A stretch of DNA of 64,000 nucleotides from positions 25,963 to 89,962 of the forward strand of contig NZ_JAUMUI010000009.1 of the NCBI RefSeq assembly GCF_030530745.1. Reading direction: 5' to 3'. Positions within the stretch are counted from its first letter, which is position 1. Each line of letters opens with the position of its first letter. Origin of the DNA: Neisseria sp. Lineage in GTDB: Bacteria; Pseudomonadota; Gammaproteobacteria; Burkholderiales; Neisseriaceae. The position numbers were made by a program, and so were the translations under genes. The notes beneath the pieces were generated by a model, which saw only the letters and a list, made by a program, of their open reading frames with translations, ran no database searches and was not told the origin of the DNA. Of this stretch, positions 1-6,380 are shown one piece after another.

Positions 1-482
1 AGTGAAAACAGAAATGCTGCATCTGCATCTTCTATTGTTGTAAATCGATTCTTACTATGATGTCGTAAATGATCTCGTCTATACTCAACAGCACTTTGTA
101 CTAAAATAAAAGTACTAATAAATTCTAAAATTAAATCATTATATTTTGAATATCTAGGTAAAAAAGCTTTATGTACACAGTGATGGCCAATTACTACTTG
201 TAATTTTCGCATTTGTCCTATAGCTACAAGCCAACAAATAGGGCACAAAATTCCAAGAACCCAATACCAATAACTAGTACCAAATAAGAATACTAAAAAA
301 GGTAATAAGAAGCTAAAAAACAAATATAATACGGTTGTGAATAGATATATCGATGGGCTTATAACATTAAACCTCTTACCTTCTAGGGCTTTTCCTGTTA
401 TTCTTGTTAAAATAGGTTGTAGCCAATTTGGTAAAACCAACATAGACTCACGAACACCTTTTTCATAATAAGATTTGATCAT
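1..482 (-). CDS. Fatty-acid-desaturase-like membrane protein, 3' part beyond window edge
   Basis: The reverse strand reads open from an ATG at 482 to the window edge, giving the first 160 residues of a membrane protein. Residues about 45-85 are strongly hydrophobic (one or two membrane passes). They are followed by histidine clusters GHHCVH (about residue 98) and HLRHH (about residue 140), the first two of the three His boxes that bind the diiron centre in membrane fatty-acid desaturases and related hydroxylases. The third box would lie outside the window. It is the last visible gene of the AT-rich operon, 17 bases after the KAS III-like gene, and probably desaturates or hydroxylates a lipid or carrier-bound chain. 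The substrate cannot be told. The class is fairly sure; desaturase versus hydroxylase is open. Confidence 0.75.
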   Translation of the reverse strand, partial: MIKSYYEKGVRESMLVLPNWLQPILTRITGKALEGKRFNVISPSIYLFTTVLYLFFSFLLPFLVFLFGTSYWYWVLGILCPICWLVAIGQMRKLQVVIGHHCVHKAFLPRYSKYNDLILEFISTFILVQSAVEYRRDHLRHHSKNRFTTIEDADAAFLFS

Positions 483-499
483 AATTATTTACTCATTCA

Positions 500-1402
500 T
501 TAATTACAATATCTAAAAACAGTAACACCGATACTACGCCTACTTGGAACTACCACAGCAATAATATCATTTTTCTTTAAATTTTTACCTACAATAATTT
601 CAGACAAATTAATTAATCCATCTGAAGCCATACAGTGCCCTAATTTATATTGTGTATAAATCTGTTGATGTGGAATTTTTAGAATCTTAGCAACTCGAGC
701 ATTAAATATTGTACTCATATTATGAGTGATTATATAGGTATTACTACTATGCAAATCTATAAACAGTAAATTATCTAAAAACTTCCTGGCAGCACTCAAC
801 AACTCATCAAGATTACTATCTAAATCCATAGGATTAAAATCCAAAGGTACTTCAGATTTAATATGTCGAATCATACTATCTAACATTTGAAACGGCCCTT
901 CATTTTTACTGATTAAGCAGGCTGTAGCTGCATCACTATGCAAATATGCATTATTACCTACAACTCGTGCGAGATGAGCATCCTCTATATCATCAGCAAT
1001 AATAACCAAAATATTTTCAGCTAGTGACGAATTAATCATCGCTTGTGCTGTTCTCAAAATAGGGGTCAGATCTCCACAATTTTGGAACCCAATAAATTGA
1101 ATATAAGAATGATACAATCCTAAGTTTGATATCAAATCATGACCAATATCTCTTTTAAAATCCAATAAATTAATAGAATTTGATCCAAAAAGGACAACAT
1201 CAATATCCATCAAATCAATTTGATTTTTCTTTAGACATTTATTCGCAGCACTAAGTGCAAGATGAAGAATATCCTGATTATTTTTACAATAATGGCTAGA
1301 TCCTTTTGCAAGCAATTGCAATGTTGAGTATCGATCTAACCCTAGATCAGATATATGATGTATAGAACCTAAAGTATGAGTAATATCCAGCAAATAAGCC
1401 AA
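500..1402 (-). CDS. Beta-ketoacyl-ACP synthase III-like (thiolase fold) enzyme
   Basis: A 300-residue protein of the KAS III size class. The likely nucleophile is C109 in QNCGDL. SDAATACL (about 156-163) matches the conserved SD.A.A segment of the fold, H227 sits in ITHNMS, and GHCMASDGLINL (255-266) occupies the place of the usual GN.SAS motif. The catalytic Asn of FabH is therefore His here (H256, with D261 nearby), as in divergent KAS III relatives that transfer or hydrolyse acyl groups rather than do the fatty-acid priming step. The start is TTG: an AAGGA ribosome site lies 7-8 bases upstream, inside the end of the aminotransferase gene, and an in-frame stop lies just before it. Stop and start are one base apart, so translation is probably coupled. 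It may acylate or extend the carrier-bound intermediate (inference). Confidence 0.75.
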   Translation of the reverse strand: MAYLLDITHTLGSIHHISDLGLDRYSTLQLLAKGSSHYCKNNQDILHLALSAANKCLKKNQIDLMDIDVVLFGSNSINLLDFKRDIGHDLISNLGLYHSYIQFIGFQNCGDLTPILRTAQAMINSSLAENILVIIADDIEDAHLARVVGNNAYLHSDAATACLISKNEGPFQMLDSMIRHIKSEVPLDFNPMDLDSNLDELLSAARKFLDNLLFIDLHSSNTYIITHNMSTIFNARVAKILKIPHQQIYTQYKLGHCMASDGLINLSEIIVGKNLKKNDIIAVVVPSRRSIGVTVFRYCN

Positions 1403-1403
1403 A

Positions 1404-2462
1404 TTAAATTCCTTTTAACTCAATAGATTGAATCCAAGATTCAGAACTTGAATAAGTTTTATTTCCAGAAGAAAAAATTTTTTTTAATCTATATGACATT
1501 AAATTAGAAAGAGTTGGATCAATAGAAACATTAAATTTTTCTCCTTCAATCAATAAATTATCTACTGTTTTAACTCCTAAAGCAGTTGATGTTATGAAAA
1601 TTTCTTTTAGGGACCTTGTTAAAATAGCATTTTTAATCTCTTCAATAAAAACATCTCGTTCTTCCATTTCTAATCCAGTATTACTTTGGATAAGTTCAAT
1701 AACACTTTGTCTAGTAACTCCTGATAAAATTGTATCTCTAAGCTTAGGCGTAATTATTTTATTGTTTATACGAAAAAAAATATTCATTGTGCTTGCCTCT
1801 TCAATCATACCATCATGAATAGAAGATAACCAAAGCACAGCATCCGCCCCCTGTTTTTGAGCTTGTTCTGTAGCTAAAAATTGATGAGCATAATTAGCTC
1901 CAGTTTTTGCAAACCCTAATCCCCCAGGAGTTGCACGATGAAAATGATTTATGACAGAAAGTGTAAATTCTTTTGGTTTAAATTCACGGATAGGAGCTGC
2001 TAAAACATAAAATAAATATTCTTTGCTTATGATTGGTAACATATGGCTATCCAAACCAATTAATACAGGACGTATATACATCCATTTGCTTGGAAATGGA
2101 TTATTCCAATTTTCTAACTCTGAACAAACTTGATAAACAGATTTAATAAAAATATCAAATGAAGGGAAATTTAGACATAATCGCTGAGCAGATTTTTGAA
2201 ATCGTCTATAATTTAATGATAAACGAAATAAATTTACTTTTGAACCTATACGATATGCTTTCATCCCTTCAAAAATACTTGCACCAAATTGCAATGCCAT
2301 AGCACCCGGATTAAGTTGAAGTTCATGAAAATCATATAATGAAGGTATATCCCATATATTATTACTAGATCTTGCAACAGATATCTTAGGAGCCCACCCT
2401 TCAAACAAATTTTCTGAAGGCAGATTATCTTTCAATAATTTTATATCCTCAAATTTAGTCAA
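1404..2462 (-). CDS. Branched-chain-type amino acid aminotransferase (PLP fold type IV)
   Basis: A 352-residue class IV aminotransferase resembling IlvE of the longer BCAT type. The FEGMKAY segment (about 64-70) and GGLGFAKTGANYA (180-192) are family landmarks, with K186 as the PLP-binding lysine; IEEASTMNIFF follows. BCATs interconvert Leu, Ile and Val with their 2-oxo acids using glutamate. The start is TTG at 2462, preceded by a strong GGAGGA site that lies within the last codons of the adenylation gene, so the two genes overlap by 8 bases. Housekeeping ilvE genes are normally elsewhere in neisserial genomes. Being inside this operon suggests a dedicated role: making or removing a branched or otherwise hydrophobic amino acid used by the cluster (inference). 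Confidence 0.85.
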   Translation of the reverse strand: MTKFEDIKLLKDNLPSENLFEGWAPKISVARSSNNIWDIPSLYDFHELQLNPGAMALQFGASIFEGMKAYRIGSKVNLFRLSLNYRRFQKSAQRLCLNFPSFDIFIKSVYQVCSELENWNNPFPSKWMYIRPVLIGLDSHMLPIISKEYLFYVLAAPIREFKPKEFTLSVINHFHRATPGGLGFAKTGANYAHQFLATEQAQKQGADAVLWLSSIHDGMIEEASTMNIFFRINNKIITPKLRDTILSGVTRQSVIELIQSNTGLEMEERDVFIEEIKNAILTRSLKEIFITSTALGVKTVDNLLIEGEKFNVSIDPTLSNLMSYRLKKIFSSGNKTYSSSESWIQSIELKGI

Positions 2463-4026
2463 TTTTACTTCCTCCTATCAATGATTTAATCATCTTCTTT
2501 CTATCATTTTTTCCATTTTCCGTAACAGGAATACTCTCATGAAAATAATAACGCCTAGGCAACATATATCTTGGTAATATCTGTGAAAGATAATATCTAA
2601 GATCAGATTCTACTGAACCTGAAATCAATGATTTACCTTGATCATTCAAAACTAATGCTGCACATAAAATTTCATTTTCCTCTTCAACTATCGTAAAAAC
2701 ACAGCAGTTTGATATATACTTAAAAGAATTAATATGTTTTTCGATTTCTTCTATTTCAATACGGTTTCCATTAATTTTTACCTGATTATCTAATCTTCCT
2801 ACAAAATAAAAACATCCATTTTTATCAAAAAAACAATTATCTCCAGTTTTGAAAACTTTATTTAAATCCATAGGTTGATTTGGATCATTTATAAGTCTTT
2901 TGGATGTTTCTTCAGGCAATTTCCAATATCCACTGAACAATGGCAATCCCCTAATTACAAGCTCTCCTATCCGATCAGATTCATATATTCTATTATTATT
3001 TTCATCCCATAACATCATTTCTATAGCACTATGCCCTTTACCAACAGGGGCGTGAGATATTTCATTAGATAAAAAATAATTAGTATCTAAAATTTCAAAT
3101 GTGCAGGCAATACTCTCTGATTGTCCATATATATTATAAAAAACTATTTCTGGTAATTTTTCATAGATTTTTCTCATATTGGCAACAGGAAAATGTTCAC
3201 CTGCAAAAATTATTTGCTTTAGTGTTACAAATTGACTTATTTTTTCATAACACACTTTAAGTATTAATTTCCATACAGTTGGGACACTACTTAAATGAGT
3301 AATTTCCCACTTTACTAATAAATCAATTAATTTTTCAGGTCGTTTTAACAATAATTTATTAGGTAAATATAAAGTTGTCCCCGTACTTAAACATAAACCG
3401 ATATCCAATAATGAAAAATCAAATTGCAATGGAGACAAACTTGCATATCTAGATCTAAGAGGAATTTTAATATGATCAATTAATCCTTTGAAAAAAGAAA
3501 CTACTGCAACATGACTCATCACAATACCTTTAGGTTTTCCAGTTGTTCCTGACGTAAATATAATCCATACAGCATCAGTTTCTAATGATTTTTTTTCAGC
3601 TGGGATCATAATACTAGGATTTTTTTGAATATGTATACAGAATCTATTGAATATTGGCTCAATACAGTTTTCATTTAAATGTTGATTCAGCACATGATTA
3701 TCTTCAAATAAGATTAACACAGGATCTAACTCTTCAATAATACTATGATATCTGGATTGAGGAGTTTCAGGAGAAATAACTGTAAATATTGATCCTACAA
3801 TTGATGATGCCAATAAAAAACAAATACTATAGAAACTTGAGTCTGCAACAATAACTATTCTATCACCAGTTTTAATACCCATATCTTTTAACCAAATGGC
3901 ACATTGATATGAACTATGTTTTAATGTATTATAAGTATAACTTCCATAAGGATCTATAATTGCATATGAGTCATTACTTCTTTTATTAAATTTTTCATTA
4001 AGCCATAAATCATGAAGAAATTCCAT
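2455..4026 (-). CDS. Stand-alone amino-acid adenylation enzyme (AMP-forming ligase)
   Basis: A 523-residue ANL-family enzyme with the full set of core motifs: P-loop FTSGTTGKPKG (157-167), FDFS with D203 at the place of the alpha-amino-binding Asp of NRPS adenylation domains, NIYGQSE, KTGD, GRLDNQVKINGNRIE, and C-terminal catalytic K506 in ENGKNDR. It would activate an amino acid with ATP and load it on a carrier protein thiol; the only carrier visible is encoded two genes upstream. Aligning by eye with GrsA gives pocket residues D-F-L-S-I-A-I-A-C-K, a hydrophobic pocket with no assignment I trust. No condensation, carrier or reductase domain is fused. Architecture is close to DltA (D-Ala ligase), but no dltBD genes are visible. 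ATG start; the stop overlaps the aminotransferase start. Confidence 0.85.
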   Translation of the reverse strand: MEFLHDLWLNEKFNKRSNDSYAIIDPYGSYTYNTLKHSSYQCAIWLKDMGIKTGDRIVIVADSSFYSICFLLASSIVGSIFTVISPETPQSRYHSIIEELDPVLILFEDNHVLNQHLNENCIEPIFNRFCIHIQKNPSIMIPAEKKSLETDAVWIIFTSGTTGKPKGIVMSHVAVVSFFKGLIDHIKIPLRSRYASLSPLQFDFSLLDIGLCLSTGTTLYLPNKLLLKRPEKLIDLLVKWEITHLSSVPTVWKLILKVCYEKISQFVTLKQIIFAGEHFPVANMRKIYEKLPEIVFYNIYGQSESIACTFEILDTNYFLSNEISHAPVGKGHSAIEMMLWDENNNRIYESDRIGELVIRGLPLFSGYWKLPEETSKRLINDPNQPMDLNKVFKTGDNCFFDKNGCFYFVGRLDNQVKINGNRIEIEEIEKHINSFKYISNCCVFTIVEEENEILCAALVLNDQGKSLISGSVESDLRYYLSQILPRYMLPRRYYFHESIPVTENGKNDRKKMIKSLIGGSKID

Positions 4027-4030
4027 AATA

Positions 4031-4699
4031 CTAAAACTCCACTATAATAGGTTCATCTCTTAATATATGTCCTTCAATATTCATCATTTTTATGATATCC
4101 TCACCTGCAATTATACGTTTTTTATACATTTCTTCTTTCTTATTTTTAATAGATGCTGATTTAATAATTAACCTTGCATGCTCTTTAGGTACATACAACA
4201 TTCCATCCATATCTCCAAAAATCCAATCACCTAAATCAAAGCTAACATCACCAATTGATATAGATTTTGTATAATGGGTATCTCTATTTATCTTTCCTAA
4301 AGAAGCAGCCATTGGAGAACAAAATAAAGCCCAAACAGGTAATTCTAATATACTAGCCTCCGCAACATCTCTCACCCCCCCAAGGCAAACAATTCCACTA
4401 AGATTTTTTTGCTTAGCAGCTAGCATAACAATATCACCTAATAATGCTTTTTTTTGACAATAATCTTTAATTAATAAAACGCTTCCTTCAGGTACTTTAT
4501 TTAGCCCTTGTAATACAGGAAGAATCTCACCTTTTGTTTCTACTGGAAACACTGGGCCAGCTAAAAATAAATTAGGTGTAAAATTTTGTAGACTATGTTG
4601 TTTTATAATTTTGACATATCCCATGCCCTTATCCCAAACCACAGCAGTTCCAAGCCTTTTTGCTTCACTTAGCATTTGATTTATAATATTAATTTCCAT
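4031..4699 (-). CDS. RraA-fold / HMG-aldolase-family protein
   Basis: About 222 residues from the chosen start. GDIVMLAAKQKNLSGIVCLGGVRD and GDWIFGDMDGMLYVP match the RraA family (formerly 'demethylmenaquinone methyltransferase'), which includes class II pyruvate aldolases, oxaloacetate decarboxylases and the RNase E inhibitor RraA. The conserved Arg-Asp pair of the metal and substrate site is present. The Asp of the usual V-D-G-x-V-R-D motif is Leu (CLGGVRD), so aldolase chemistry is uncertain. A longer reading starts at 4750 and would overlap the carrier gene by 62 bases. I prefer ATG 4699 (11-base overlap, starting MEINIINQ), although neither start has a clear ribosome site, which suggests coupling to the carrier gene. 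Its role in the cluster is unknown. Confidence 0.7.
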   Translation of the reverse strand: MEINIINQMLSEAKRLGTAVVWDKGMGYVKIIKQHSLQNFTPNLFLAGPVFPVETKGEILPVLQGLNKVPEGSVLLIKDYCQKKALLGDIVMLAAKQKNLSGIVCLGGVRDVAEASILELPVWALFCSPMAASLGKINRDTHYTKSISIGDVSFDLGDWIFGDMDGMLYVPKEHARLIIKSASIKNKKEEMYKKRIIAGEDIIKMMNIEGHILRDEPIIVEF

Positions 4700-4928
4700 A
4701 ATTTTTATATATTGATTTAATAGTTGAAAATTTTGATACTTTAAAATCATCTATATCAATAGAGTTTCCTGTTAAATTTTCAATAAAAATAATTAATTCA
4801 ACAAGAATTAAAGAATCAACATATCCCGATTCAATAATAAGAGTATCTTCTTGAATCAAACTAGAATCAATTCCTGCTTTTTCTGAAATGAATTTTTTTA
4901 CCTCAAAAGTAAATTTTTCATATATCAT
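4689..4928 (-). CDS. Acyl/peptidyl carrier protein
   Basis: A 79-residue free-standing carrier protein. S39 in YVDSLILVELIIFIE is the expected 4'-phosphopantetheine attachment site (D-S-L motif), flanked by the acidic helix typical of the family. A reading from TTG 4949 adds seven residues, but ATG 4928 has GGAAGG just upstream and fits the usual carrier length. It lies between the diiron oxygenase (42-base gap) and the RraA-like gene (11-base overlap). As the only carrier in the visible part of the operon, it is the natural partner of the adenylation enzyme and of the KAS III-like enzyme. The phosphopantetheinyl transferase would have to be the host's own or lie beyond the window. Confidence 0.85.
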   Translation of the reverse strand: MIYEKFTFEVKKFISEKAGIDSSLIQEDTLIIESGYVDSLILVELIIFIENLTGNSIDIDDFKVSKFSTIKSIYKNYGN

Positions 4929-4970
4929 GATTTTCCTTCCCATATTCAATTAATGTTTAAATCTAAAATA

Positions 4971-5843
4971 CTATTTAGCTGGTAATAAATCCATTTCTCC
5001 TAAAAAGTTAATTAGAGAATTAACCCTTTTTATAGATTTTGGACTTTTAGCAAAAAAACTCTCATTTGAATACGATATCAATTTTTCTCTTAATAAAAAG
5101 GCTTCTTTAATTCCAATCTCTTGATAAATCTTTATATTATGGTAATCAATATGCCTTGTTTTTAAATAATTAAGAACATGATCTTGTAACTTTTTCCACT
5201 CAAATGAACCAACTAACTGTTTTACAAATTCCACATGTTCACGTACTAACAGCCTGCCAAATGATATATGCCGTCCTTCATCTGCTACATGATAGGCATT
5301 AATAGCACGAACCAACTCAGGTAACCTATCATCATTCATTAGAGTTTCATTAATCCCCTGCCCTAATTCTTCAAAAATTAAAACATGAATAAATGTTAAT
5401 AAATCTTCAGTTTCAGCATACTCCCACATATCTCCTTGTGCGTAAGAATAAAGAATTGGGTAAAATTTACCGTATTTCTCACAAAAATCTGCAAACATTC
5501 TCATATGATTATTTTCTTCTTCTATAAAAAAATGAAAATATTTTCTAAATGCTGAATATCTTGATTTGAACATACGCCTAACCATATTGGCTACAACTTC
5601 TTTTTCTCCAGATGCAGATACTGAGCATAAAAGACAAAATTCTAATTGCGACAACCGTTTTTGTTGTTCAATAGATAATTTATCATATTCAGGCTGGCCA
5701 TAAATTGTTATAAGCTCAGGTGAAATCCAAAAGCTATCCATATCAGGAGCCTTATTCCAAGGCAAATCGTCAAATGGGTTTAATCTTCGCTTAATAGAAG
5801 CTTTTAAAAGGTTTTCGATGATATTATCTTTGCGTATTGACAT
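4971..5843 (-). CDS. AurF/CmlI-like diiron N-oxygenase
   Basis: A 290-residue protein of the p-aminobenzoate N-oxygenase (AurF) family, which oxidises amines to hydroxylamines, nitroso or nitro groups at a non-haem diiron centre. The ligand pattern is visible: EENNH (E110, H113), FEELGQG (E158), and HVADEGRH (H185, E189, H192). The spacings of E158-H185-E189-H192 equal those of AurF E196-H223-E227-H230; a further upstream Glu (E80 or E68) could complete the set. It is the first gene of the operon. An AAGG sits 13 bases before the ATG, a rather long spacing, and the transcript probably starts near 5883 from a poly-G-spaced promoter. AurF-like enzymes next to NRPS-type activation genes make N-oxygenated signals in the mgo, pvf and ham clusters; a similar use here is an inference. 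Confidence 0.85.
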   Translation of the reverse strand: MSIRKDNIIENLLKASIKRRLNPFDDLPWNKAPDMDSFWISPELITIYGQPEYDKLSIEQQKRLSQLEFCLLCSVSASGEKEVVANMVRRMFKSRYSAFRKYFHFFIEEENNHMRMFADFCEKYGKFYPILYSYAQGDMWEYAETEDLLTFIHVLIFEELGQGINETLMNDDRLPELVRAINAYHVADEGRHISFGRLLVREHVEFVKQLVGSFEWKKLQDHVLNYLKTRHIDYHNIKIYQEIGIKEAFLLREKLISYSNESFFAKSPKSIKRVNSLINFLGEMDLLPAK

Positions 5844-5889
5844 GGGATATTTAGTACCTTTATGTTTTTTAAGATTAAAAATAATTTTT

Positions 5890-5919
5890 AATGTATGCCC
5901 CCCCCCCTAGAAAGTTCAA
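5890..5919 (-). promoter_or_regulatory. Candidate phase-variable promoter with ten-G spacer
   Basis: On the minus strand TTGAAC (5914-5919) and TACATT (5890-5895) are 18 bases apart, and the spacer contains ten consecutive G (5898-5907). Both hexamers match consensus at four of six positions. Neisserial porA, opc and fetA promoters use a homopolymer between -35 and -10 in this way, so that slipped-strand changes in tract length alter transcription. Nine G would give the optimal 17-base spacing. The predicted start near 5883 leaves a 40-base leader before the AurF-like gene. Confidence 0.6.
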
Positions 5920-6117
5920 ATTAATTTATAACTATTTGATTATAAAATGAATTTATTTCAAAACTTGGATCAACATTCTTGTTCTTTCAAAGGTTAATAC
6001 ACATTTTTCATATTTAAATTTGTGCAATCACAAAGATCACATGCTACTACTTAAAAGTATTTTTAGCATAATGTAATTCCTATCCCCTATAAATACGATG
6101 AGGCTGCCTTTTGTATT

Positions 6118-6126
6118 CCCCCCCCC
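6118..6126. repeat. Homopolymeric tract of nine C
   Basis: Nine consecutive C on the plus strand. On the minus strand TTGGAT lies upstream and TACAAA downstream with a 15-base spacer, an arrangement parallel to the ten-G promoter 200 bases nearer the AurF-like gene (TTG.A..TAG-polyG-.ATACA). It could be a second, currently short-spaced promoter for the same operon or a decayed duplicate of the first. Confidence 0.5.
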
Positions 6127-6259
6127 TAATATCCAACTTACTCGTGACTAATCTGAATTTTTAAGAGATTCCACAAAATAAGCAGTATTAAGTATTAACT
6201 GCATAACTCACATTTCCTCTATAATTGAAAAGTCTTTGCATCAAAATTCCTTGCGGTTG

Positions 6260-6268
6260 CCCCCCCCC
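6260..6268. repeat. Homopolymeric tract of nine C upstream of the OmpA-like gene
   Basis: Nine consecutive C in the leader of the plus-strand OmpA-like gene. TTGCCC (6258-6263) overlaps the tract and TAAAAT (6280-6285) follows 16 bases later, so tract length could tune a promoter. The downstream bases belong to a short dispersed repeat whose copies near 34109 and 56685 lack the long C run, so the tract has expanded here. Confidence 0.4.
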
Positions 6269-6380
6269 GTTTGTGGCGGTAAAATCTGGTTTTATCTGCA
6301 GGGGCTCAGCCTCTTTCAAATCAGGGCAACGCTTTATGTGCCGCCCCATGTTGAAACATAATCTATTAAAGGAAAAGGAA

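What the first reader, a model, noticed from the sequence alone, without database searches (positions are those of the whole stretch)
1..5843. Undescribed-looking N-oxygenase/carrier-protein biosynthetic cluster in an AT-rich island
Seen: seven coupled genes on one strand, an AurF-like diiron oxygenase with its ligand pattern, a carrier protein, an RraA-fold protein, an adenylation enzyme, a BCAT-type aminotransferase, a KAS III-like enzyme and a desaturase. GC is near 30% by eye and no DUS is present, against a DUS-dense GC-richer core. Known: AurF-family enzymes oxidise amines; mgo, pvf and ham clusters pair such enzymes with NRPS-type activation to make N-oxygenated signals. Inferred: this operon makes a small amino-acid-derived hydroxylamine, nitro, diazeniumdiolate or similar compound with a fatty-acid-type tail or modification, acquired from a low-GC donor. 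Split NRPS genes plus desaturase plus KAS III is not an arrangement I can match to a described pathway.
Basis: partly seen in the sequence, partly recalled or inferred. Interest (0 to 1): 0.85.

Follow-up and report, generated by a model that had tools for sequence, protein, structure and literature searches.

The report
Acquired carrier-protein N-oxygenation gene cluster
One species of a bacterial genus carries a foreign nine-gene cassette that probably loads an amino acid onto a carrier protein, oxidises its nitrogen and exports a small product; the product is unknown, but the core enzyme set has many relatives in other bacteria and can be tested directly.

Summary
Seven genes lie in the window; two more (O-methyltransferase, EamA exporter broken by a stop) lie to its left. 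The 9,088-bp island (GC 30.9% against 55.5%, no DUS against 12 expected) sits between glyQ and an OmpA-like gene, which are 125-429 bp apart in 27 of 46 other genomes of the genus. Its AurF homologue is in 1 of 84 family genomes.

The oxygenase belongs to an AurF subfamily linked to aminoacyl-carrier-protein loading: 76 of 80 named relatives (one a near-tie) have a SerRS-like amino acid:[ACP] ligase or an amino-acid-type A protein within 1.5 kb, against 0 of 23 more distant AurF homologues. The A protein is closest to beta-amino-acid:ACP ligases; the KAS III-like protein has a ChlB3/CerJ-type Cys-His-Asp; three desaturase relatives sit beside amino-acid exporters. I read it as a discrete-carrier pathway to a small N-oxygenated, possibly beta-, amino acid rather than a lipid. 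AurF-type oxidation of a tethered amino acid is known (HamC/PvfB); this architecture is a new variant. All three C/G runs of nine or more in 64 kb lie upstream of the operon, one in a weak promoter-like spacer: phase variation is plausible, unproven. Product and donor are unknown.

The parts
4971..5843 (-). AurF-type (ferritin-like) diiron oxygenase, 290 aa, first gene of the operon; proposed N-oxygenase of a carrier-bound amino acid
   Evidence: Pfam AurF 113 bits; AlphaFold2 pLDDT 92.4; Foldseek top eight PDB hits are AurF or CmlI chains, 13-16% identity; ligands E68, E110, H113, E158, H185, E189, H192
4689..4949 (-). Discrete acyl/aminoacyl carrier protein, 86 aa
   Evidence: NCBIfam ACP models below cut-off; aligns with the carrier of the G148 cluster; DSL motif read from the sequence
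4031..4750 (-). RraA-like aldolase/decarboxylase-type protein; overlaps the carrier gene, and an internal ATG near 4699 is a likelier start
   Evidence: Pfam RraA-like 85 bits; GGVRD motif; a relative is the direct neighbour of AurF in L085
2455..4026 (-). Stand-alone adenylation enzyme (aminoacyl-ACP ligase), 523 aa
   Evidence: Pfam AMP-binding 187 bits; best solved-structure match 5jjq, then the beta-aminoacyl-ACP synthetase 8yyr/7dq5; best plasmid match 35.7% in L192
1404..2462 (-). Class IV (BCAT-type) aminotransferase, 352 aa
   Evidence: Pfam Aminotran_4 112 bits; NCBIfam BCAT models 236 and 200 bits, both below cut-off
500..1402 (-). KAS III-like acyltransferase or condensing enzyme, 300 aa
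   Evidence: Pfam ACP_syn_III 25.4 bits; AlphaFold2 pLDDT 84.3, FabH-like fold; C109, H256, D261 in 25 of 25 aligned proteins
1..482 (-). Membrane desaturase/hydroxylase, part within the window; continues left to a 393-aa protein (L003 5264-6445)
   Evidence: Pfam FA_desaturase 46.4 bits; NCBIfam GntB_guanitoxin 28 bits, far below cut-off
5898..5907 (-). Run of ten G (minus strand) between a -35-like TTGAAC (5914-5919) and a -10-like TACATT (5890-5895), spacer 18: possible phase-variable promoter
   Evidence: only 8 of 12 consensus matches, and the promoter scan did not list it
6118..6126 (-). Second run of nine G (minus strand), upstream
6260..6268 (-). Third run of nine G (minus strand), inside a dispersed repeat at the right end of the island
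5844..6356 (.). Right-hand non-coding part of the inserted DNA; native sequence resumes near 6357
   Evidence: blastn against L149 and L150, the two closest relatives

Best explanation
A horizontally acquired, nine-gene, one-strand biosynthetic cluster. The stand-alone A protein adenylates a small amino acid, more likely a beta- than an alpha-amino acid, and loads it onto the discrete carrier protein; the AurF-type diiron enzyme oxidises the amino nitrogen while it is tethered (hydroxylamine, oxime or nitro level). The KAS III-like enzyme moves or condenses the acyl group; the RraA-type enzyme and the class IV aminotransferase make the amino acid or trim the released product; the desaturase and the O-methyltransferase finish it; an EamA-type exporter, broken in this assembly, would send it out. 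Shown: gene content, fold and metal ligands of the oxygenase, its association with aminoacyl-carrier loading, the insertion at a conserved site. Inferred: substrate, order of steps, oxidation level, product. Possible but unproven: promoter phase variation by the G run.
For: Of 80 named AurF relatives, 62 have a SerRS-like amino acid:[ACP] ligase and 14 an amino-acid-type A protein within 1.5 kb (76 of 80, L081 being a near-tie), 71 a carrier protein within 1.5 kb and 79 within 4 kb (first counts); 0 of 23 more distant AurF loci have a ligase, an A protein or a carrier protein in their 1.5-kb flanks. The same functional set with non-homologous loader and transaminase (methyltransferase, class III aminotransferase, carrier, ligase, RraA, AurF) is in L085. 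A protein: solved-structure matches led by 5jjq and beta-aminoacyl-ACP synthetases, and one Streptomyces relative lies beside a D-beta-phenylalanine-forming aminomutase and a carrier protein. The A protein's best plasmid hit and one of only two KAS III plasmid hits fall in the same Paenibacillus cluster, with a carrier protein between them. Nitronate monooxygenase family genes lie near AurF in 3 of 80 loci plus L115, which fits a nitro or nitronate product. Precedent: HamC oxidises NRPS-tethered valine. AurF/CmlI fold. Empty site in 27 of 46 relatives.
Against: No product, no assay, no expression data. The window's AurF is a very long branch (3.58) and its place is unsure; it departs from the subfamily at two near-invariant positions (N71 to L, D162 to Q), so its substrate may differ. 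L031 (G554) has the AurF relative beside a type I polyketide synthase, without ligase, A protein or separate carrier. L044, L075 and L096 have only a FAAL-like protein within 1.5 kb, the amino-acid-type A protein being 5.4-6.8 kb off. The 80 loci are the best of 297 and are mostly actinobacterial. Only one of the 80 loci has RraA nearby, and none has the aminotransferase, the desaturase or the methyltransferase within 4 kb at the thresholds used. The NMO-like proteins score best with FabK in NCBIfam, below cut-off. The exporter gene is broken, so the cluster may be decaying. The carrier protein reaches no curated cut-off.
Confidence: 0.6

Rival explanations
1. Surface decoration: the N-oxidised aminoacyl group is made on the carrier and moved by the KAS III-like acyltransferase onto a surface sugar or lipid, not released as a free small molecule.
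For: AurF-carrier-A sets with a shared protein of about 375 aa occur in 11 loci, several among polysaccharide-type genes as read by eye; the KAS III-like protein has the Cys-His-Asp of ChlB3 and CerJ, which pass acyl groups to a carrier and to a sugar; poly-G phase variation in the genus is typical of surface determinants (passages of PMC5953494).
Against: The island has no glycosyltransferase or flippase; it has an EamA-type exporter and an O-methyltransferase, and its desaturase relatives lie beside amino-acid exporters.
Confidence: 0.15
2. Lipid pathway: carrier, KAS III-like enzyme and desaturase make a modified fatty acid, and the AurF-like enzyme acts on an acyl chain.
For: Carrier, KAS III fold and FA_desaturase family; a ferritin-like diiron enzyme acting in biotin precursor synthesis appears as a reference title in PMC13336041.
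Against: The A protein is of the amino-acid adenylation type (279.7 bits for the amino acid adenylation domain model, below its cut-off of 317.4) and closest to beta-aminoacyl-ACP ligases; the aminotransferase does not fit; no ketoreductase, dehydratase or enoyl reductase in the island.
Confidence: 0.1
3. A decaying or inactive relic of a foreign cluster.
For: In-frame stop in the exporter gene; one genome in the genus; no DUS.
Against: The eight other genes are full length and open; the metal ligands and the KAS III residues are intact. The stop may be a sequencing error or strain-specific.
Confidence: 0.15

Closest known systems
ham (fragin/valdiazen) and pvf clusters
   Same: An AurF homologue (HamC; PvfB) oxidises the nitrogen of an amino acid held on a carrier domain (passages of PMC5878181 and PMC11659414; the PvfB paper itself is not held).
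   Different: There one A-T-R protein (HamD) with a haem-oxygenase-like protein, a cupin and a cyclase; here separate A protein and carrier, no reductase domain, plus RraA, KAS III-like, desaturase and O-methyltransferase.
Bacillota MAG cluster L085
   Same: Methyltransferase, aminotransferase, carrier, aminoacyl loader, RraA-like and AurF on one stretch.
   Different: SerRS-like ligase instead of the A protein, class III instead of class IV aminotransferase, no KAS III-like gene or desaturase, ABC instead of EamA transporter; product unknown.
Paenibacillus cellulosilyticus plasmid cluster L192
   Same: Best plasmid match of the A protein (35.7%) and one of two KAS III matches (24.5%), with a carrier protein and a methyltransferase.
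   Different: A P450 and an FMN-type protein instead of the AurF enzyme; a PLP decarboxylase and a second AMP-binding enzyme; product unknown.
Beta-amino-acid:ACP ligases (VinN, IdnL1, CmiS6, HitB)
   Same: Stand-alone A protein and stand-alone carrier; best solved-structure matches; the FDFSLLDIGL pocket stretch is identical to 5jjq as aligned.
   Different: Those feed macrolactam polyketide synthases (passages of PMC11284099); here there is no polyketide synthase.
dob (4-diazo-3-oxobutanoic acid) pathway
   Same: AurF/CmlI-like enzyme beside carrier-bound chemistry (passages of PMC13061610).
   Different: dob uses hydrazone-forming enzymes and a type I polyketide synthase, neither of which is in the island, and Dob3 acts on a free hydrazone.

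Membership tests
AurF-type ferritin-like diiron N-oxygenases (PF11583) | Profile score over the curated cut-off | tested here: met
   113 bits against 29.6
AurF-type ferritin-like diiron N-oxygenases (PF11583) | Seven metal ligands (four Glu, three His) in the right order | tested here: met
   E68, E110, H113, E158, H185, E189, H192; 49 or 50 of 50 aligned. Assigned by order and spacing against the Dob3 list quoted in PMC13061610, not by superposition
AurF-type ferritin-like diiron N-oxygenases (PF11583) | AurF/CmlI fold | tested here: met
   Foldseek ranks 1-8 are AurF or CmlI chains, best E 9e-5, TM 0.55-0.64
AurF-type ferritin-like diiron N-oxygenases (PF11583) | N-oxygenase activity | not testable with these tools
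   Needs the enzyme
ham/pvf/mgo diazeniumdiolate-type clusters | Multidomain A-T-R synthetase | tested here: not met
   A protein has AMP-binding and AMP-binding_C only
ham/pvf/mgo diazeniumdiolate-type clusters | Haem-oxygenase-like (HamA) and cyclase (HamE) partners | tested here: not met
   No such Pfam domain in the cluster's proteins
ham/pvf/mgo diazeniumdiolate-type clusters | AurF homologue beside amino-acid activation | tested here: met
dob/azaserine hydrazone-diazo pathways | Hydrazone-forming enzyme set | tested here: not met
   No N-hydroxylase or hydrazine-forming gene among the cluster's proteins
Beta-amino-acid:ACP ligases | Nearest characterised proteins are beta-amino-acid ligases | tested here: met
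   The best solved-structure matches include these enzymes; one of five listed Streptomyces plasmid relatives was viewed and lies beside a beta-Phe aminomutase
Beta-amino-acid:ACP ligases | Specificity pocket and loading of a beta-amino acid | tested here: inconclusive
   Part of the pocket matches 5jjq in the printed alignment; compared by eye; no assay
KAS III condensing enzymes (FabH) | Cys-His-Asn catalytic triad | tested here: not met
   Cys109 and His227 present, but the Asn position is His256
CerJ/ChlB3-type KAS III acyltransferases | Cys-His-Asp with His and Asp five residues apart, first His lost | tested here: inconclusive
   C109, H256, D261 in 25 of 25, spacing as C113/H296/D301 in ChlB3 (passages of PMC9573744); but the window protein keeps the first His, which is H in 12, Q in 12 and N in 1 of 25
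Phase-variable neisserial promoters (porA type) | Poly-G run between -35 and -10 | tested here: inconclusive
   G10 in an 18-nt spacer, hexamers only 8 of 12, not listed by the scan; the run as such exceeds chance (3 runs, mean 0.0005 in 2000 shuffles)
Phase-variable neisserial promoters (porA type) | Tract length differs between isolates and changes expression | not testable with these tools
   One genome holds the cluster

The most novel reading that the evidence does not exclude
The cluster is a phase-switchable factory for a new N-oxygenated beta-amino acid (beta-nitro, beta-oxime or O-methyl-hydroxylamine type), and its oxygenase belongs to a large, unassigned class of diiron enzymes that work on amino acids held by discrete carrier proteins. 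This class would be the missing partner of many SerRS-like amino acid:[carrier protein] ligases, whose downstream chemistry is unexplained in the papers found here.
Probability: 0.3. Interest if true: 0.78.

Novelty: new variant of a known kind. Interest (0 to 1): 0.6.

Why it matters
Two things become testable. First, a carrier, a loading enzyme and an AurF-type oxygenase recur together across Actinomycetota, Pseudomonadota, Myxococcota, Acidobacteriota, Nitrospirota, Bacillota and others, which suggests a general way to oxidise amino-acid nitrogen on a discrete carrier protein and gives the SerRS-like amino acid:[ACP] ligases a likely downstream partner. Second, a small-molecule pathway under a possible phase switch in a host-associated genus would be unusual: the phasome paper consulted (passages) stresses surface proteins and their modifiers. 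If the product is a reactive amino-acid analogue, it could matter in competition at the mucosal surface; that last step is speculation.

Tried and rejected
Tried without result: a copy of the oxygenase in viral contigs (no pattern match) and phage records (none); a defence reading (PADLOC: only the methyltransferase hit, a mad2 model, through its methyltransferase fold); a solved relative of the desaturase by sequence (none); solved AurF relatives by plain sequence search (only chance-level MEMO1 hits), so the fold search was needed; the literature for a cluster of this kind and rhizobitoxine-type desaturases (listing only). The lipothrenin and paulomycin papers were looked at in passages: neither has this arrangement.

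Considered and rejected: E80 as a metal ligand (E in 28 and I in 22 of 50; E68 fits better); rhizobitoxine- or AMB-like product (recalled chemistry, no gene evidence); mgo/pvf/ham membership (no A-T-R protein, no HamA/HamE partners).

Own first count corrected: searches gave 80 of 80 within 4 kb and 79 of 80 within 1.5 kb for 'ligase or A protein', but that A profile also caught fatty-acyl-AMP ligases; one search separates them and gives 76 of 80 (L081 a near-tie of 57.0 against 56.6 bits), and 71 rather than 75 for the carrier within 1.5 kb. The report uses. The control had 23 loci with at most 1.5 kb of flank, one of them (L028) cut short by a contig end.

Gene calls in high-GC loci are rough; cluster families were not used.


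Full report
Where it lies. The window is G000:C44:25963-89962 of an unnamed 2,276,341-base genome in 53 contigs. The dense 10-mer GCCGTCTGAA marks it, by recalled knowledge, as Neisseria. The finding touches the window's left edge, so the continuation was fetched (L002 and L003). The full cluster, in transcription order: AurF-like oxygenase, carrier protein, RraA-like, A protein, class IV aminotransferase, KAS III-like, desaturase (393 aa), O-methyltransferase (195 aa), EamA transporter split into 113 and 172 aa by an in-frame stop. Next come glyQ on the left and an OmpA-like gene on the right.

An insertion at a clean site. glyQ was found in 46 of 47 genomes of the genus and the OmpA-like gene, or a relative, in 35 of 47. 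From the printed coordinates the two genes are neighbours in 27 of the 46 other genomes with gaps of 125-429 bp, and 9,189 bp apart in G000. Against the two closest relatives, alignment stops at L003 3226-3231 and resumes at L003 12320 = window 6357. The 9,088 bp between have 30.9% GC and no DUS; 76 lie in the rest of the window, 12 expected. With 11 DUS in the 17.2-kb left flank the contrast is smaller but of the same sign. The AurF gene was found in 1 of 47 genomes of the genus, 1 of 84 of the family (profile search), 35 of 300 of the order and 6 of 398 of the phylum sample; outside G000 only two of those genomes had a relative above 100 bits (G554 and G148, about 31-32% identity). The named scan of 84,980 species found 297 relatives, the best at 35%. 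The scan uses short patterns and leaves out records very near the window's genome, so a close copy elsewhere is unlikely, not excluded.

What the oxygenase goes with. One search kept the best 80 of 297 relatives with 10-kb flanks. In one search, 62 of 80 have a SerRS-like amino acid:[ACP] ligase within 1.5 kb and 14 an A protein that scores closer to amino-acid-type A proteins than to a fatty-acyl-AMP ligase: 76 of 80, one of them (L081) a near-tie. L064 has one at 1.6 kb; L044, L075 and L096 have an amino-acid-type A protein only at 5.4-6.8 kb and a FAAL-like protein nearer. A carrier protein is within 1.5 kb in 71 and within 4 kb in 79 (none found in L072). Of 23 more distant AurF homologues, none has any of the three in its 1.5-kb flanks. 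One relative breaks the pattern: in L031 the gene precedes a type I polyketide synthase. The ligase identity was checked for two loci: both match NCBIfam amino acid--[acyl-carrier-protein] ligase best, below its cut-off. On the tree the loader type changes at least five times, so loader and oxygenase are partly interchangeable modules. The window's own protein is a very long branch, and its place is unsure.

The enzyme itself. Pfam AurF 113 bits. The AlphaFold2 model from a 50-row alignment has pLDDT 92.4, and the first eight Foldseek hits in the PDB are AurF or CmlI chains at 13-16% identity. Seven ligands fit by order and spacing. The window protein differs from its relatives at two near-invariant positions, N71 to L and D162 to Q.

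The other genes. The A protein's best solved-structure matches are 5jjq, then HitB-type beta-aminoacyl-ACP synthetases 8yyr/7dq5, and 5jjp (the names IdnL1 and CmiS6 for 5jjq and 5jjp are recalled; one search gives passages on these enzymes). Among 2,551 plasmid records with a match the best is Paenibacillus cellulosilyticus at 35.7%, followed by Streptomyces records; the one Streptomyces region viewed has a D-beta-phenylalanine-forming aminomutase and a carrier protein beside it. The KAS III-like protein hits only two plasmid records, one of them the same Paenibacillus cluster, where the carrier gene lies between. Two independent queries meeting in one locus suggest that A protein, carrier and KAS III-like enzyme form a sub-pathway. 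The KAS III model (pLDDT 84.3) matches FabH-type structures. In 25 aligned proteins Cys109, His256 and Asp261 are invariant while the FabH first His is H in 12, Q in 12 and N in 1; ChlB3 uses C113, H296, D301 (passages of PMC9573744), and the loss of the first His goes with loss of condensation (passages of PMC4425429). The window protein keeps its first His, so either activity is open. The desaturase is in the FA_desaturase family; its only NCBIfam hit is the guanitoxin arginine hydroxylase model at 28 bits against a cut-off of 380. Of its four plasmid relatives, three were viewed: AzlC/AzlD beside it in L112 and L114, EamA and DMT transporters in L113.

A near-match in function. L085, a Bacillota MAG, has methyltransferase, class III aminotransferase, carrier, ligase, RraA-like protein and AurF within 6 kb. 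The transaminase and the loader there are not homologous to the window's, yet the list of functions is nearly the same. It is the only one of the 80 loci with RraA near AurF.

Oxidation level. Nitronate-monooxygenase-family genes lie near AurF in L048, L089 and L105 (3 of 80) and in L115; Pfam NMO confirms three of the four, NCBIfam prefers FabK below cut-off. This hints at nitro or nitronate products in those branches; the window has no such gene.

Regulation. The window's only C/G runs of nine or more are three, all in the 513 bp upstream of the operon: 5898-5907 (10), 6118-6126 (9), 6260-6268 (9); mean 0.0005 in 2,000 shuffles of that stretch. The first lies between TTGAAC and TACATT with an 18-nt spacer, as poly-G does in porA (passages of PMC3639595), but the hexamers match only 8 of 12 and the scan did not list the site; other promoter-like stretches lie further upstream. 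The third run is part of a dispersed repeat. Phase variation is a good hypothesis, no more.

Mechanism and verdict. Best reading: small amino-acid-type product, built on a discrete carrier, nitrogen oxidised while tethered, then moved, desaturated, O-methylated and exported. The chemistry has a precedent in ham/pvf, so the kind is known; the discrete architecture, the partner set and the host are new among what was searched. Confidence 0.6 for this reading, low for any particular structure. The broken exporter is a real point against activity in this strain.

Noticed in passing
L003 about 3271-3472 (left of window position 1): Element of about 200 bp with inverted-repeat arms at the island's left border; related copies in 22 of 47 genomes of the genus, many per genome in some. 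It looks like a small non-autonomous mobile or repeat element.
   Followed up: partly
window 6222-6330: Dispersed repeat of about 100 bp at the island's right border: 13 matches in the own genome including itself, and matches in 10 other genomes of the genus. On contig C17 of the own genome, relatives of both border repeats lie within 600 bp of each other.
   Followed up: partly
L003 3659-4567: EamA transporter gene at the end of the operon is interrupted by an in-frame stop; both parts match Pfam EamA. Real decay or sequencing error is open.
   Followed up: no
window 4375-4381: Run of seven C inside the RraA-like gene, shorter than typical phase-variable tracts.
   Followed up: no
L030, L032, L051, L054, L057, L062, L067, L088, L095, L111: Recurrent cluster across several phyla: KAS III-like, AurF-like, carrier, amino acid:[ACP] ligase, SDR, ferritin-like protein, FAAL-like enzyme; MMPL-type exporter read by eye in L030.
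   Followed up: partly
L034, L036, L038, L045, L049, L061, L069, L070, L078, L087, L102: AurF-carrier-A protein sets with a shared protein of about 375 aa that has no Pfam or NCBIfam match for the one tested (L034), several among polysaccharide-type genes by eye.
   Followed up: no
L042 4607-15801: Streptomyces hygroscopicus AurF-ligase locus beside a SAM synthetase (Pfam confirmed) and, by eye, other methionine-cycle genes: possibly a methyl-rich product.
   Followed up: no
L115 8708-12629: Agrobacterium vitis F2/5 plasmid: carrier, diiron oxygenase, nitronate monooxygenase, SerRS-like ligase relative and phosphopantetheinyl transferase in a row.
   Followed up: partly
L117 3013-18681: Azospirillum argentinense plasmid: A protein, carrier, methyltransferase, diiron oxygenase, NRPS, PKS and arginine 2,3-aminomutase as annotated, another hint of beta-amino acids with this oxygenase class.
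   Followed up: no
own genome C17:37375-37662 and C3:18835-19068: Two phosphopantetheinyl transferase family matches, so the host could activate the carrier protein itself.
   Followed up: partly
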